NCBI GenBank assembly: GCA_943354655.1
Contig: CALRCT010000006.1
Location: 1-11,992, forward strand
Reading direction: 5' to 3'
DNA length: 11,992 nucleotides
From: an uncultured Candidatus Saccharimonas sp.
GTDB taxonomy: Bacteria > Patescibacteriota > Saccharimonadia > Saccharimonadales > SZUA-47
The position numbers and the translations under genes are program-made. A model generated the notes under the pieces. That model saw nothing but the letters and a program-made list of their open reading frames with translations, did not search any database and was not told the DNA's origin. This document shows positions 2,478 to 10,933 of this stretch, in pieces. Each line of letters begins with the position of its first letter. The stretch's first letter is position 1.

Positions 2478-3697
2478 CTAAAGAACACATGAATATGGCC
2501 CTAAGCTCTATAAATACATCAAGAACTAGAAGTTTTATGACTATGTTTGGGGTAATTATTAGCGTTTCATCGGTAATAACTATTGTTGGTCTTGGGCACG
2601 GCTTAAGAAACCAGGTAAGCAAACAAATTACAAAACTCGGAAGCAATTTAATAATTGTTCAACCCGGAAAGCCCAACAGCAGTAGTGCCGTAAGTTTGCA
2701 TTCATTACAAAGCGTAGCAAGTAGTCCTGACGGCATAATAACCGAGCAAGATCTTTCGGCAGTAGCAAAAACAGCCGACATAAACTTATTAAGCCCCATC
2801 GCCACAATTACAGGTCTACCAAGTTTTGAAGAAAAAACTATGACAAATACGGTTATTGTAGGCGCAAGCGAATCATTGCCAGAAATAGTCGATAAAAAAG
2901 TTAAATACGGTAGTTTTTTCTCTAAAGAAGATTCAACTAAATACTACGCCGTTATTGGTAGAGGCGTAGCCGAAGAATTGTTTAACGAAAACATCCCAAT
3001 CGGAAAGTCATTCAAAATCAGAAACGTAGAATTTATAGTACAAGGAGTTTTTGAAGAAACCCCGGTTACTCCATTATCTCCATCTGTAAACTTTAATAAT
3101 TCTATTGTTATACCTTATACAAAAGCCAAAGAAATTAGTGCTGGCAGCATGCAAATAAGCCAAATACTAGTTACTACTAAAAGTGCAGACGTAACAGAAA
3201 AAGTGTCTAAAACCATACAGTCAACGCTACTAAAAAACCATGGCGGACAAGAAGACTTTAGCGTACTTAGACAAGAAGAAACCTTGGCAATTAGTGACGG
3301 AGTTTTTAGCCAATTAACTATTTTTATCGGTGGCGCTGCTTTTATTTCACTAATTGTTGGCGGTATTGGAATAATGAACATTATGTTTGCAACAGTTAGT
3401 GAACGTACGCGTGAAATTGGAATCAGAAAAGCAATTGGCGCAACAAATAAACAAATCATTGATCAATTTATAATAGAGGCCGTAACGCTGTCTGCCACAG
3501 GTGGAATGGTCGGTATAATACTGTCGCTCATGATTATTATTGCAATCAGATCTACTACAAGCCTAGAACCAGCAATAGTATTGCCTGTAATTGGCGGATC
3601 TTTTTTGGTAAGCGTTGGAGTAGGAATAATATCTGGAATATTACCGGCAATTAAAGCAGCCGGAAAAGACCCTATTGATTCGCTACGCGGACTTTAA
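2474..3697 (+). CDS. ABC transporter permease, MacB/FtsX family
   Basis: The protein has 407 residues. It has the MacB layout: one N-terminal membrane helix (about 21-42, after NTSRTRSFMTMFG), a large extracytoplasmic domain (about 45-275, MacB_PCD type), then three membrane helices (about 281-305, 337-359 and 368-393). The conserved cytoplasmic link SERTREIGIRKAIGAT sits after the second helix and contacts the ATPase. The ATG lies in the ATGA overlap with the ATPase stop and is preceded by AAGGA 7 nt upstream, so translation is coupled but has its own SD. The stop is only 2 nt from that of the convergent isomerase. It probably works with the ATPase as a dimer; the substrate cannot be inferred. 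Confidence 0.92.
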   Translation: MTKEHMNMALSSINTSRTRSFMTMFGVIISVSSVITIVGLGHGLRNQVSKQITKLGSNLIIVQPGKPNSSSAVSLHSLQSVASSPDGIITEQDLSAVAKTADINLLSPIATITGLPSFEEKTMTNTVIVGASESLPEIVDKKVKYGSFFSKEDSTKYYAVIGRGVAEELFNENIPIGKSFKIRNVEFIVQGVFEETPVTPLSPSVNFNNSIVIPYTKAKEISAGSMQISQILVTTKSADVTEKVSKTIQSTLLKNHGGQEDFSVLRQEETLAISDGVFSQLTIFIGGAAFISLIVGGIGIMNIMFATVSERTREIGIRKAIGATNKQIIDQFIIEAVTLSATGGMVGIILSLMIIIAIRSTTSLEPAIVLPVIGGSFLVSVGVGIISGILPAIKAAGKDPIDSLRGL

Positions 3698-6795: not shown

Positions 6796-7080
6796 ATGGT
6801 ACACAACGAATTACCTAACCCATCAGTCGATTTATTAAAATACGACGGTGTAGACGCAACCAGGCTTATTGCTGACAGCTTAGAATTTACTAATATTACT
6901 CTTACGATTGGTGAATTAGTACTAGGTAAAATTAGCTCTGTTAGACCCGGACCAGAAGATAGAACAATTATGGTGATCGGAAGTTTATCTAACTTTCAGC
7001 CAATAAAATTTAAGTATAGCGTCGACGACATGCCGACCATATTCCCTTTAATCGAAGTTAGTGAAATTATAAAAAATTAA
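6796..7080 (+). CDS. Small hypothetical protein, 94 residues
   Basis: No family is recognised. The protein is acidic to neutral, with an N-terminal helix (about 8-30, VDLLKYDGVDATRLIADSLE) and then probable beta strands (ITLTIGELVLGKISSV, RTIMVIGSL, FQPIKFKYS), suggesting a small alpha/beta or barrel fold. There is no signal peptide or membrane span. It has its own promoter with a nearly absent leader and its own terminator, so it is a monocistronic unit. Both support a real gene, although no homologue can be named. It is divergent from the 283-residue unknown with a 62-nt gap between starts, which hints at a shared regulatory region. Confidence 0.72.
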   Translation: MVHNELPNPSVDLLKYDGVDATRLIADSLEFTNITLTIGELVLGKISSVRPGPEDRTIMVIGSLSNFQPIKFKYSVDDMPTIFPLIEVSEIIKN

Positions 7081-7108
7081 AAAAGCTACCAAAATTGGTA
7101 GCTTTTTT
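7081..7108. terminator. Bidirectional rho-independent terminator between the 94-aa gene and groEL
   Basis: A 12-bp stem pairs AAAAGCTACCAA (7081-7092) with TTGGTAGCTTTT (7095-7106), with a T tract on both strands. It starts directly after the stop at 7080 and lies 16 nt from the groEL stop, so it can end both convergent units. Confidence 0.92.
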
Positions 7109-7123
7109 AATTAATAAACAGCT

Positions 7124-8791
7124 CTAGTAGTCAGCGCCCATGCCGCCCATACCAGCGGCTGCCGCTGATTTTGGCTCTGGTACTTCTACTACCAATGCAC
7201 CCATAGTCATGCCTGTTCCAGCAATACTAACCGCATTCTGAATCGCTTCGCGCGTTACGCGCTTAGGATCAATAATTCCTTTAGCTTTTAAGTCTACTAA
7301 CTTAGCTGGATCGTTAACATTAACGCCAAATCCTTGTTTACCTGACTTAACTTGCGGTAACCATTCGTCTGGATTAATTGCAGAGTTTTCCATTAATATA
7401 CGAAAAGGTTGTTCTAGTGCGCGCTTAAGCAAAAACTTGCCGTTACTGTAAGCAACGTTATCTACGCCAACTATTAATTTTTCGTCTTGGACTATAAGGT
7501 CGGCAAGATTAACCATAGTTACGCCACCGCCAGCCACGATTCCTTCGTCTAGTGCGGCTTTAACTGCAGCAACTGCATCGTCTACTCTAAACTTCTTTTC
7601 TTCTATTTCTGTCTCTGTTGCTCCACCTACTTTAATAACTGCAACCTTGCCACCAAGTGATGCGGCACGTTTTACCAAAGGTTCGTTTGCGTAATGTGTG
7701 TCTGGTTTTTTAGAATCAACCTGAGCCAAAATATGCTTAATACGAGACTTAACATCTGCCGCACTTCCTGCGCCTTCTATTATTGTTGTGCTGTCTTTGC
7801 CAACAATAACTTTACGGGCGCGTCCTACTACTTCTAGTCCTACGGTATCAAAAGTCATACCCAAGTCTTCGGTAACGACTGTGGCACCTGTAAGTATTGC
7901 AATATCGTTTAGTACTTCTTTACGTCGGTCGCCAAACTCTGGAGCTTTTACAGCTACAGCGTTAAATACACCTTTTAACTTGTTTAAAATTAGAGCGCCA
8001 AGTGCTTCACCCTCTACATCTTCGGCTATTAAAATAAGATTTTTTTCGCCTTTTGCTGCCAATTTTTCTAGAATTGGTAAAAATTCTTGGATATTGCTAA
8101 GTTTTTTGTCGGTTATAACAATTGCTGGCTTGTCATATACAGCCTGCATTCGCGTACTGTCGGTAACCATGTATGGGCTAACAAAACCTCTGCTAAATGT
8201 AAATCCTTCTACTACTTCGTGTTCTAGATGTAGTCCCTGACCTTCTTCAACGGTGACTACGCCCGATTTACCTACTTTGTCCATCACATCAGCAATTAAT
8301 GCACCAATTTCGGCGTCACCTGCGCTAATAGTTGCAACTTCGGCGATGCGGCTCTTTTTGCCTTCTATGCTTTCGGCCATACCGTTTAGTTTTTTAAGTA
8401 CATCTGTTGCTGCTGCTTCTAGCCCTTTTCTAAGTAGCATTGGGTTATGTCCTGCTGCTATCAGTTTATTTGCTTCGTTTAAAATATGGTACGTCAAAAC
8501 AGTAACGGTAGTAGTACCGTCGCCTGCAACATCGTTCATTTTGCTGGCCGCTTGTTTTATAAGTTCGGCACCTACTTTGTAACCCAAAGTTTCGTCGTCT
8601 ACGTCTGCAATCTCTACGCCTTTTGCTACAGTAACACCGTCATGAGTAACCGTTGGTGAGCCGTAAGTTTTGCTAATAATTACGTTACGTCCCTTTGGTC
8701 CCATTGTAGTTTTAACTGCTTCATACAAAATACGAGCTCCGCCCAATACTCTTCTGCGCGCATCTTCGTCATAAAAAACTTTTTTAGACAT
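7124..8791 (-). CDS. groEL: 60-kDa chaperonin GroEL
   Basis: The protein has 555 residues, a normal GroEL length. GroEL assembles into double rings of seven subunits that fold proteins in an ATP-driven cycle in the cytosol. Landmarks are MGPKGRNV near residue 31, the nucleotide-binding GDGTTT, the apical-domain stretch with VVEGFTFSRGFVSPYM, DDAVAAVKAALDEGIVAGGG with the hydrolytic Asp, and a short GMGGMGADY tail that keeps only a brief GGM-like repeat. The start is MSKKVFYDEDARRRVL, 3 nt after the groES stop, with AAGG about 9 nt upstream. It is co-transcribed with groES under the CIRCE-bearing promoter and ends at the hairpin 7081-7108. The sequence is diverged from proteobacterial GroEL but no key residue seems missing. 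Confidence 0.98.
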   Translation of the reverse strand: MSKKVFYDEDARRRVLGGARILYEAVKTTMGPKGRNVIISKTYGSPTVTHDGVTVAKGVEIADVDDETLGYKVGAELIKQAASKMNDVAGDGTTTVTVLTYHILNEANKLIAAGHNPMLLRKGLEAAATDVLKKLNGMAESIEGKKSRIAEVATISAGDAEIGALIADVMDKVGKSGVVTVEEGQGLHLEHEVVEGFTFSRGFVSPYMVTDSTRMQAVYDKPAIVITDKKLSNIQEFLPILEKLAAKGEKNLILIAEDVEGEALGALILNKLKGVFNAVAVKAPEFGDRRKEVLNDIAILTGATVVTEDLGMTFDTVGLEVVGRARKVIVGKDSTTIIEGAGSAADVKSRIKHILAQVDSKKPDTHYANEPLVKRAASLGGKVAVIKVGGATETEIEEKKFRVDDAVAAVKAALDEGIVAGGGVTMVNLADLIVQDEKLIVGVDNVAYSNGKFLLKRALEQPFRILMENSAINPDEWLPQVKSGKQGFGVNVNDPAKLVDLKAKGIIDPKRVTREAIQNAVSIAGTGMTMGALVVEVPEPKSAAAAGMGGMGADY

Positions 8792-8794
8792 AGT

Positions 8795-9064
8795 TTAAGC
8801 CTTTACCTTTGCATATACGTTTTCTTCTTTTACTAAAATATATTCTGTTGATTCGATTGTTACTTCGGTGTTGCTATATCCGCCGTAAACAACGCGGTCC
8901 CCAACTTTTACGTCTTTAACATCTTTGCCTACAGCTAATACTTTGGCTATTTTTGGTTTGTCGGCGGACTTTTCTGGCAAATACAAACCACTGGCAGTCT
9001 TAGTTTTAACTACTTCTTGCTCTATAACAACATAATCCGCTAGCGGAACTAAAGGTACACTCAT
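8795..9064 (-). CDS. groES: 10-kDa co-chaperonin GroES
   Basis: The protein has 89 residues and forms the heptameric lid that caps GroEL. It has the N-terminal strand VPLADYVVIEQ (the usual PLxDRV with Arg replaced by Tyr), the mobile loop TASGLYLPEKS (about 23-33) that docks on GroEL, a conserved KVLAVGK turn, VGDRVVYGGYSNTEV, and a C-terminal strand YILVKEENVYAKV. The ATG at 9064 follows a strong SD (GGAGG at 9075-9071 on the minus strand, 6-nt spacing). It is the first gene of the chaperonin operon. The leader is about 80 nt and contains a hairpin. Confidence 0.97.
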   Translation of the reverse strand: MSVPLVPLADYVVIEQEVVKTKTASGLYLPEKSADKPKIAKVLAVGKDVKDVKVGDRVVYGGYSNTEVTIESTEYILVKEENVYAKVKA

Positions 9065-9143: not shown

Positions 9144-9170
9144 CTAGCACTCACTATATATGAGTGCCAG
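9144..9170. promoter_or_regulatory. CIRCE operator (HrcA binding site)
   Basis: CTAGCACTC (9144-9152), a 9-nt spacer and GAGTGCCAG (9162-9170) match the CIRCE consensus TTAGCACTC-N9-GAGTGCTAA, with substitutions only at the outer positions. CIRCE is bound by the heat-labile repressor HrcA in front of groESL or dnaK operons. Position, spacing and target gene all fit. hrcA itself is not in the window. Confidence 0.93.
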
Positions 9171-9182: not shown

Positions 9183-9197
9183 TACCTCTTAAAAACT

Positions 9198-9219
9198 AAA
9201 AAACCGCACTAATATGCGG
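9198..9219 (-). terminator. Rho-independent terminator at the end of the large RNA
   Basis: On the minus strand CCGCA (9219-9215), a 6-nt loop and TGCGG (9208-9204) are followed by TTTTTT (9203-9198) and a further T-rich tract to 9191. It begins 18 nt after the 17-bp closing stem of the putative RNA and 15 nt before the groES -35 box, so it separates the two minus-strand units. Confidence 0.85.
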
Positions 9220-9237
9220 ATAAACAAACGAAGTGAT

Positions 9238-9254
9238 AAATAAGAGAGATTGTA
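9238..9254. repeat. Left arm of the perfect 17-bp inverted repeat
   Basis: AAATAAGAGAGATTGTA here is the exact reverse complement of 9889-9905. In the minus-strand RNA this arm is the 3' strand of the closing helix. No target-site duplication flanks the pair, so a transposon end is not supported. Confidence 0.9.
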
Positions 9255-9832
9255 ATTGAGTGTGAAGGTGGTGCGGGGGTTGCTAATAAGCGATGTTGAT
9301 CGATTTAAATCGTTCTAATCTTTTATTAAACAATCCCCCGCTCCGTGTCGATACTAAAAATAGCATCAACCCTTCCGCATACAGCAATCTGCAGTTCCAT
9401 GAGTGGTATTGAACAACAAAGCAATTTTACTGCATGCCTATTTTCATTATTCCCCCCAAGAGGTAGAAGTTAAAAACAGATTCACCCGCTACGCGATGCT
9501 TCCTCCGTGTGCCCGAACATCTTCTAGGTCAAATTTAGCCAGACTTTCGGCGACACGAACGCGAATTGCGTCTATGTTCCCCCTGCCTTTGGTTGGCGTA
9601 AACAAAACCTCGCATGACAGTCCTTTGTGGACCTTGCGGGCATCCGGCGAGCGCGTCGGTTCGTTGCTTTTAACGAACCTGTTATTCAACTTGGCGCGCT
9701 GTCGTTGCCTTTCATGCCTTTTTGTTCGGGCCGGCTTATCATCTATGTAGCTTTTCAAGGCTACCCCCATTCCTGGATTGAGTGCAACGTTTCACAACGA
9801 GGCAGTCTTATGCATTTGCTCTTGTCTCACGA

Positions 9833-9874
9833 CAGTGCACGCTATTATTAACCGCTTAATAACACCGTGCACTG
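9833..9874 (-). other. Long hairpin near the 5' end of the putative RNA
   Basis: CAGTGCACG (9833-9841) pairs with CGTGCACTG (9866-9874), 9 bp. After a 3x3 internal loop, TTATTAA (9845-9851) pairs with TTAATAA (9856-9862), 7 bp, around a 4-nt loop. It lies 14 nt inside the closing helix. Confidence 0.8.
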
Positions 9875-9888
9875 CCCTAGAGTTTTTA

Positions 9889-9905
9889 TACAATCTCTCT
9901 TATTT
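9889..9905. repeat. Right arm of the perfect 17-bp inverted repeat
   Basis: TACAATCTCTCTTATTT is the exact reverse complement of 9238-9254, 634 nt away. In the minus-strand RNA it is the 5' strand of the closing helix. Confidence 0.9.
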
Positions 9906-9977
9906 GTAAATGTACAGCCATCGCTTGTGCGATGACACAGCGTTTATCTTATTTGACAAACTTGTTAGTAAATGTAC
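9906..9977 (+). repeat. Direct repeat of GTAAATGTAC
   Basis: The 10-mer occurs at 9906-9915 and 9968-9977, 62 nt apart. Each copy contains TACATT on the minus strand, the -10 box of the promoter at 9999-9971 in the distal copy. The proximal copy lacks a good -35. Confidence 0.5.
9919..9934 (-). other. Small hairpin in the 5' leader before the closing helix
   Basis: CATCGC (9919-9924) and GCGATG (9929-9934) form a 6-bp stem with a 4-nt loop. It would be transcribed if the promoter at 9999-9971 is used and is outside the 17-bp closing helix. Confidence 0.5.
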
Positions 9978-9999
9978 TCCTACATATCTTAATTGTCAA
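9971..9999 (-). promoter_or_regulatory. Promoter of the putative large RNA
   Basis: On the minus strand a perfect TTGACA (9999-9994), a 17-nt spacer and TACATT (9976-9971) precede the RNA. The predicted start is near 9964, about 60 nt before the closing helix. The 10-mer holding the -10 box recurs at 9906-9915, where a start would fall at the helix itself. Confidence 0.7.
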
Positions 10000-10072: not shown

Positions 10073-10933
10073 ATGTCTTTAATAAACAAACATGTGCTAA
10101 TGAGCGGAACTGATTATTTTGACGATGGCTATGCCATTAACGCTCATATGGACGACAAAATACCGGTTGACCGCGTAAAAGCAGCCCAAGAACATGCCAA
10201 AATAGCAGAATATATGCAAAGTGCAGGCATAGCGGTAAGCAAAATTGCAGCACCAAAAAACTGCCAGGACGGAGTATATACTGCAAACTGGGCGCTAATT
10301 CATGGCAATACTGCCGTTATGGCAAACTTACCAAATATACGCGAATCCGAAGAATCTTATGCCAAAGATGTTTTAAAAAATCTAGGCTATAACACAATTA
10401 AATTACCCAAAGAAATTCATTTTAGCGGACAAGGCGACGCTTTGCCATGTGGAAAATATTTGTTTGTAGGAACAAATTATCGAACCAGCCCAGAAGCGCA
10501 TCAACTGCTTGAACAATACCTTAAATTAGACGTAATTGGACTACAAACGGTTCCACAAACCAACAGCAACGGCAGCCTAGTTATTAACAAAGTTACCGGC
10601 TGGCCAGACAGTTTTTTTTACGACCTAGATCTTGCTTTGGCAGTAATTAACCAAAATACAATTGCTTGGTGTCCTGACGCCTTTACTGCAGAATCATGCA
10701 AAAAAATAAGAGACCTAAAAGAACTAGTTAAAATAGAGGTTAGTTTAGACGAAGCTATGAACGGCTTTGCTTGCAACCTAGTGTCTACCGGAAAATCTGT
10801 AATTATGAGCAACCATGCGCCTATTCTAAAAAAGGCGCTGATTGACCTAGGATTAACAGTTTATTGTCCTGATGTAACCGAACTTTTAAAGGGTGGCGGT
10901 TTTATTAGATGTACTACTCTTACACTAAATTAG
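10073..10933 (+). CDS. DDAH/amidinotransferase-fold protein with catalytic His replaced
   Basis: The chosen ATG gives 286 residues, the size of dimethylarginine dimethylaminohydrolase-like proteins of the guanidino-modifying (GME) superfamily. Family landmarks are DYFDDGYAINAHMD (14-27), the substrate-side DGVYTANWAL (66-75), FSGQGDAL (117-124), and KGGGFIRCTTL (273-283) with Cys280 as the expected nucleophile. The usual FYHLD before the second half reads FFYDLD here, so the His partner of the catalytic pair is Asp184. If real, this would weaken or change hydrolysis of arginine-like substrates. A TTG at 10028 is in frame, but the promoter overlaps that extension and homology begins after the ATG. 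It has no signal peptide. It is convergent with the murE-linked gene, with 7 nt between stops. Confidence 0.82.
   Translation: MSLINKHVLMSGTDYFDDGYAINAHMDDKIPVDRVKAAQEHAKIAEYMQSAGIAVSKIAAPKNCQDGVYTANWALIHGNTAVMANLPNIRESEESYAKDVLKNLGYNTIKLPKEIHFSGQGDALPCGKYLFVGTNYRTSPEAHQLLEQYLKLDVIGLQTVPQTNSNGSLVINKVTGWPDSFFYDLDLALAVINQNTIAWCPDAFTAESCKKIRDLKELVKIEVSLDEAMNGFACNLVSTGKSVIMSNHAPILKKALIDLGLTVYCPDVTELLKGGGFIRCTTLTLN

What the first reader, a model, noticed from the sequence alone, without database searches (positions are those of the whole stretch)
9191..9999. Candidate large structured RNA of about 0.7 kb next to groESL
A protein-free stretch has a near-consensus minus-strand promoter (TTGACA-17-TACATT), a perfect 17-bp inverted repeat joining its ends, many internal helices and a clean rho-independent terminator. 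I see no motifs of tmRNA, RNase P RNA, SRP, 6S or group I/II introns. The size and closed ends resemble the ornate large bacterial RNAs (OLE, GOLLD and ROOL are examples of the type), but I cannot assign it to one of them.
Basis: partly seen in the sequence, partly recalled or inferred. Interest (0 to 1): 0.87.

Follow-up and report, generated by a model that had tools for sequence, protein, structure and literature searches.

The report
Structured, gene-carrying RNA cassette near groES
The stretch beside groES looks like a real, strongly folded transcript unit, but probably not a protein-free RNA: it resembles a set of folded messages found at the same place in some Saccharibacteria (bacteria that live on actinobacteria), each carrying a different small gene whose codon usage is shifted away from its own genome towards that of actinobacteria.

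Summary
The signals are real: promoter-like site, perfect 17-bp closing repeat, strong folding (z -9.8), terminator, no plausible Rfam match. 'Protein-free' is doubtful. Eight relatives, one cut off by a contig end, lie in the groES-upstream slot in the same orientation: closing helix of 12-17 bp with a GAGAT core, 5' hairpin with compensatory changes (0 of 500 shuffles), one small ORF, 3' hairpins, terminator. A 5'-module model hits 5 of 392 genomes; three were in its training set, two are new. No two cargo ORFs are related. Their GC3 exceeds that of the long ORFs beside them in all 8 complete members; against an actinophage codon table the score is positive in 5 of 8, not in the window. One cargo is a BldC-family regulator. 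The window element is divergent: the model does not score it, so its membership rests on place, orientation, closing repeat, layout and ORF composition. Best reading: an end-closed structured mRNA carrying an exchangeable small protein, perhaps aimed at the actinobacterial host. That the RNA itself enters the host is not excluded, but nothing here shows export.

The parts
9971..9999 (-). promoter-like -35 TTGACA (9994-9999) and -10 TACATT (9971-9976), spacing 17
   Evidence: sequence
9889..9905 (-). 5' arm of the closing helix P1
   Evidence: pairs with 9238-9254 at mean probability 0.95
9826..9882 (-). 5' hairpin P2, at the place of the relatives' conserved hairpin but divergent in sequence
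   Evidence: main stems 0.98-1.0, outer stem 0.86; 5' module: sense -34.4, antisense -20.0
9489..9758 (-). small ORF (cargo), 89 codons from TTG behind GGGGG; 93 codons if read from ATG 9770; net charge +10, no known relatives
9488..9751 (-). central folded domain with a four-way junction, overlapping the ORF
9258..9487 (-). 3' module: several hairpins, one with GGGGGGAAU also seen in L047 (by eye)
9238..9254 (-). 3' arm of the closing helix P1
9195..9219 (-). rho-independent terminator
9145..9166 (-). CIRCE-like operator of groESL (name recalled), just downstream of the terminator
8795..9064 (-). groES, neighbour on the downstream side
10076..10933 (+). DDAH-like hydrolase (PF19420), neighbour on the other side

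Best explanation
A transcript unit in the variable slot upstream of groES in a saccharibacterium. Shown by comparison in relatives: a shared frame (closing helix, 5' hairpin, one ORF, 3' hairpins, terminator) around an exchangeable small ORF whose GC3 is above that of the neighbouring long ORFs. Inferred for the window: it is a divergent member with the same layout. Inferred mechanism: the bacterium transcribes the unit from its own AT-rich promoter; the ends pair and the flanking hairpins make a compact, long-lived mRNA; the small protein it encodes acts on the actinobacterial host cell (one relative encodes a BldC-type regulator; in Streptomyces BldC prolongs vegetative growth), made either in the epibiont and exported or, less likely, from the RNA inside the host.
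For: Slot and orientation: L047, L051, L060, L068, L089, L297, L325, L326. Closing helix: 10 of 15 pairs changed on both sides in 8 members, covariation score reached by 0 of 500 shuffles. 5' hairpin: 12 of 22 pairs changed on both sides in 5 members, score 0.541 reached by 0 of 500 shuffles, at most 0.227 in slid registers. The 5' module is more stable on the sense strand in 8 of 9. Model R3: 5 of 392 genomes at E <= 0.1; new beyond the training set are G048 (61.7 bits) and G083 (48.9), both in this neighbourhood. Cargo GC3 0.56-0.94 against 0.29-0.62 for long ORFs of the same loci; in 8 of 8 the cargo lies nearer an actinophage codon table than every 270-nt piece of those long ORFs. Five ordinary ORFs sharing the slots of L047, L051 and L060 have GC3 0.36-0.47, so not every slot gene is shifted. 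L297 cargo passes the NCBIfam BldC cut-off (92.1 vs 77 bits) and matches PDB 6ama (E 3.4e-18). L326 cargo has a 63% identical homologue over 82%. Best promoter sites lie 87-105 nt above P1 in 6 of 8. BldC role: PMC6428758, abstract. Essential T4SS resembling conjugative ones: PMC10633639, passages.
Against: R3 does not score the window element with filters off, and L060 only at 19.6 bits. blastn and models of the window's own domains find no relative in 99, 392 and 60 genomes. The window ORF scores low by its own genome's codons and its only database match is an identical prediction, perhaps the same population. Against the actinophage table the cargo score is positive in 5 of 8 only; for window (-0.71), L089 and L297 the own table still fits better, and the yardstick is a single phage. 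Most relatives were found by their inverted repeat, so pairing of P1 is partly ascertained; 8 of the 44 loci have unrelated 13-15 bp repeats. Over the whole element the antisense strand folds as well or better in L047, L051, L060, L068 and L089; the 3' module clearly prefers sense only in window and L326. In L047 and L060 other ORFs lie between cassette and groES. Promoter matches are not significant in 4 of 8. No expression data, no evidence of export.
Confidence: 0.45

Rival explanations
1. A large noncoding structured RNA (OLE/GOLLD/ROOL-like) in which the open frame is chance.
For: Extreme folding; low codon score of the ORF by the window's own usage; an overlapping 115-codon ORF on the other strand shows that such frames arise here by chance; R3 does not score the window.
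Against: All 7 complete relatives carry an ORF at the same relative place with GC2 lowest and raised GC3; two of those ORFs are conserved proteins.
Confidence: 0.2
2. A gene cassette acquired from the actinobacterial host or its phages and simply expressed in the saccharibacterium; raised GC3 records its origin, not its place of action or translation.
For: tblastn of the L297 cargo matches 184 phage records, nearly all actinophages, over its DNA-binding part; Saccharibacteria are naturally competent (PMC10633639, passages); phages shared by Saccharibacteria and Actinobacteria are predicted (PMC10746230, abstract); the slot is generally variable.
Against: The two other cargos tested have no match in 50,697 phage records (L326, L089), L326 none in plasmids and one homologue in 5.8 billion proteins; the frame is kept while the cargo changes. 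It overlaps with the best explanation and is not excluded.
Confidence: 0.28
3. An invertible DNA element: the 12-17 bp repeats are recombination sites and the segment flips relative to the outside promoter.
For: Promoter outside, ORF inside, perfect repeats with a conserved core; matching changes in both arms are also expected if recombination needs identical arms.
Against: 8 of 8 complete members have the ORF in one orientation; P2 covaries too and prefers the sense strand; no recombinase family among the window's ORFs scanned, though several gave no family at all; the second scaffold L227 has G-U pairs in its closing helix.
Confidence: 0.05

Closest known systems
OLE, GOLLD and ROOL large bacterial RNAs
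   Same: Size, intricate predicted fold, closed ends, own transcript unit
   Different: No Rfam match; relatives carry one ORF inside; tied to the groES neighbourhood
hok/sok-type type I toxin mRNAs (recalled)
   Same: Short structured mRNA whose 5' and 3' ends pair around a small ORF
   Different: No antisense RNA looked for; cargos are unrelated to each other, one is a transcription factor; not tested as toxins
Integron and other gene-cassette systems (recalled)
   Same: Constant frame with exchangeable small ORFs at one place
   Different: No integrase family seen among the window's ORFs scanned; the frame is part of the predicted transcript and its hairpin covaries
BldC family regulators of Actinobacteria
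   Same: Cargo of L297 passes the curated cut-off and matches the solved chain 6ama (the identity of 6ama as Streptomyces BldC is recalled)
   Different: Only this one cargo; it has a longer C-terminal part; it also just reaches the excisionase-type domain cut-off

Membership tests
OLE / GOLLD / ROOL and other Rfam families | match to the curated covariance model | tested here: not met
   only mir-1912, mir-223 and TeloSII_ncR43, all far below gathering scores; that the three large RNAs are in Rfam 15 is recalled
RNase P RNA | match to RF00010 | tested here: not met
   the genome has its own rnpB on contig C15
tmRNA | match to RF00023 or ARAGORN tmRNA | tested here: not met
   in this incomplete genome only hits below the RF00023 cut-off
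groES-upstream cassette family of this report | slot upstream of groES, read towards groES | tested here: met
   window; relatives
groES-upstream cassette family of this report | closing helix with GAGAT core | tested here: met
groES-upstream cassette family of this report | 5' module scored by model R3 | tested here: not met
   no hit at the element with filters off; a hairpin is at the place but divergent
groES-upstream cassette family of this report | one ORF with GC3 above neighbouring genes | tested here: met
   coding itself not proven for the window
Invertible DNA element | both orientations observed | tested here: inconclusive
   8 of 8 complete members in one orientation; no reads to look for flipped copies
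Type I toxin mRNA | toxic product and antisense RNA | not tested
   needs expression data

The most novel reading that the evidence does not exclude
The folded, end-closed transcript is itself the effector: the epibiont makes a long-lived mRNA whose codons lean towards its actinobacterial host, passes it into the attached host cell, and the host's ribosomes make a small regulator (BldC-like in one lineage) that keeps the host growing for the parasite. A cross-phylum mRNA delivery system.
Probability: 0.08. Interest if true: 0.97.

Novelty: categorically new. Interest (0 to 1): 0.76.

Why it matters
How Saccharibacteria control the actinobacteria they live on is open. Here is a genomic place where some of them keep small, unrelated, quickly changing genes in a shared RNA frame, one of them a regulator of an actinobacterial developmental family. 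It gives concrete candidate host-directed genes, a signature (closing helix, 5' hairpin, raised GC3, groES neighbourhood) to find more, and a testable question: does a product reach the host, and is it the protein or the RNA?

Tried and rejected
blastn of the region in 99 relatives, 392 class genomes, phages and plasmids: only short chance-level matches. Single-sequence models R1 (3' domain, 99 genomes) and R2 (central domain, 60 genomes), and both in 44 DDAH loci: only the window at E below 1. Pseudogene of genes that fill the slot in relatives: best E 0.37. ORF as a known protein: nothing in Pfam, PHROGs or NCBIfam; phrog_14264 at E 0.0068 for the L047 cargo I treat as chance. The same pattern hit 15 of 392 genomes; 2 (G017, G036) pass both checks, 13 do not. 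Alignments A3, A4, A5 and A7 were not used for counts: window, L060 or the arms were misaligned, or A6 superseded them; A6 leaves out window and L060, and L325 and L326 were not yet known. MT836007.1, an unannotated faecal contig with the best BldC hit among phage records, gives 17.2 bits with R3 (E 0.064), which I do not count. The strongest fold signal in L047 (z -12.9, 3087-3336) that led me to the locus lies beside the cassette, not in it. Literature: eight searches; among the titles and abstract beginnings listed I saw nothing on such cassettes. Only the listed top rows were seen and most subscription journals are not held, so this is weak evidence of absence.

Full report
OBSERVATION. 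The minus strand from 9999 to about 9195 has a promoter-like site, a perfect 17-bp inverted repeat enclosing 634 nt, strong predicted folding and a terminator. The fold is 9.8 standard deviations below 20 dinucleotide shuffles. In a scan of 300-nt pieces on both strands the region stands out with the tRNA-Ser gene and 6901-7350 at the groEL end. The core folds better as the minus than as the plus strand. Rfam gives nothing plausible (one search lists only the tRNA). The genome has a normal RNase P RNA elsewhere; it is incomplete (66%) and shows no tmRNA over the cut-off, while 7 of 11 family genomes do.

FIRST SEARCHES FOUND NO RELATIVES. blastn in 99 relatives, 392 class genomes, phages and plasmids gave only chance-level pieces. 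Models of the window's own 3' and central domains found only the window. By the window's own codon usage the 93-codon ORF looked noncoding (-0.24 bits per codon; whole genes 0.10 to 0.45).

SYNTENY OPENED IT UP. A scan of named genomes with the DDAH-like neighbour gave 44 loci; in 27 of them groES was found upstream, and the slot between varies from 142 bp to 3.6 kb. A fold scan of 25 slots drew attention to L047, although its strongest window lies beside the cassette. An inverted-repeat scan of the 44 loci found perfect repeats of 13 bp or more in 12; in L047, L051, L060 and L068 they lie in the slot and share TGAGAT, the other 8 are unrelated. The window's arm has the same GAGAT core. A pattern search of 392 genomes added L089; 100 groES-upstream stretches, some short, added L297; model R3 added L325 and L326. 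That is nine with the window; L325 is cut by its contig end. All are oriented towards groES where groES is in view.

PLACE. The cassette ends 130-174 nt before the groES match in window, L051, L068 and L089, but 1.4 kb in L047 and 2.9 kb in L060, where other ORFs lie between. L326 has groES downstream and a Mur-ligase-like ORF, not DDAH, on the other side (name recalled); a Mur ligase also lies just beyond DDAH in the window. R3 hits 5 of 392 genomes at E <= 0.1. G017, G036 and G257 are training members; G048 and G083 are new. Four of the five are directly upstream of groES; for G048 the contig ends inside the ORF with DDAH where expected. The search scored at most 12 candidates per genome with strict filters, so weak copies are missed, as the window itself shows.

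ARCHITECTURE. In order: best promoter sites 87-105 nt above the closing helix in six of eight (window 65, L068 38); a G[CT]AC motif a few bases before the helix in the eight complete members (by eye, no control); closing helix P1; hairpin P2; a purine-rich stretch before the start codon; one ORF; 3' hairpins; P1 3' arm; hairpin plus T-run (by eye, weak in L068). P2: 12 of 22 pairs changed on both sides among 5 sequences, 0 of 500 shuffles, at most 6 in slid registers; the count of pair types is less striking (26 of 500). P1: 10 of 15 pairs, 0 of 500 shuffles, 8 sequences including the window; since several members were found by their repeat, the pairing is partly ascertained. The 5' module prefers the sense strand in 8 of 9, L297 being the exception; the 3' module has no general preference; over whole elements the antisense strand folds as well or better in five of six members compared.

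CARGO. The ORFs encode 54 to 153 residues (window 89 or 93); no two are related by blastp (best E 0.44) and five of eight have a net positive charge. GC3 is 0.89 (L047), 0.94 (L051; 0.93), 0.87 (L060), 0.77 (L068), 0.70 (L089), 0.69 (L297), 0.83 (L326) and 0.56 (window), against 0.29-0.62 for long ORFs of the same loci, which I did not check gene by gene. In all eight the cargo is nearer one actinophage's codon table than any 270-nt piece of those ORFs; the absolute score is positive in five and negative in window, L089 and L297. Untranslated parts have GC 0.41-0.58 in six members, and five other ORFs of the same slots have GC3 0.36-0.47, so the shift is neither regional nor general. The L297 cargo is a BldC-family regulator; in Streptomyces venezuelae BldC represses sporulation genes and extends vegetative growth (PMC6428758, abstract). 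The L326 cargo has one homologue besides its own record among 5.8 billion proteins. The window cargo matches only an identical 89-residue prediction on a 2.1-kb contig.

SHOWN AND INFERRED. Shown: a set of ORF-carrying, covarying structured units in one neighbourhood, with shifted codon usage. Inferred: the window unit belongs to it. For: slot, orientation, arm core, layout, ORF with raised GC3, terminator. Against: R3 does not score it, its hairpin does not align, its cargo is unrelated. Less certain: host-directed function. For: raised GC3 in every complete member, the BldC cargo, an essential conjugation-like T4SS in a cultured saccharibacterium (PMC10633639, passages). Against: no export or expression data; acquisition from host or phage DNA would leave the same codon signal, and phages shared between the two phyla are predicted (PMC10746230, abstract).

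VERDICT. I rate the family as solid, the window's membership as likely, host-directed action as plausible, and delivery of the RNA itself as a bold, open possibility.

Noticed in passing
L047 2757-3116, L051 3339-3791, L060 1042-1395 (+ strand): A second kind of high-GC3 ORF (0.77-0.81) in the same slots on the opposite strand, each followed by a large hairpin and a GGGCTT...AAGCCC structure: apparently a second structured cassette family.
   Followed up: partly
L227 and L235 (genomes G362, G045), upstream of groES: A second scaffold with closing arms around GGCAA...TTGCC and 174- to 184-codon ORFs of GC3 about 0.7.
   Followed up: partly
L306, upstream of groES: A 68-codon ORF with GC3 0.78 between a promoter-like site and a strong hairpin; possibly a third scaffold.
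   Followed up: no
window 6901-7350: Strong folding on both strands at the groEL 3' end (z down to -6.4), probably terminator hairpins.
   Followed up: no
window 9899-9977: A 17-nt direct repeat (88% identical) at the -10 site and again just before the closing helix.
   Followed up: no
L043-L086: The slot between groES and the DDAH-like gene is highly variable across Saccharibacteria (27 of 44 loci with both genes found, 142 bp to 3.6 kb), a hotspot worth its own survey.
   Followed up: partly
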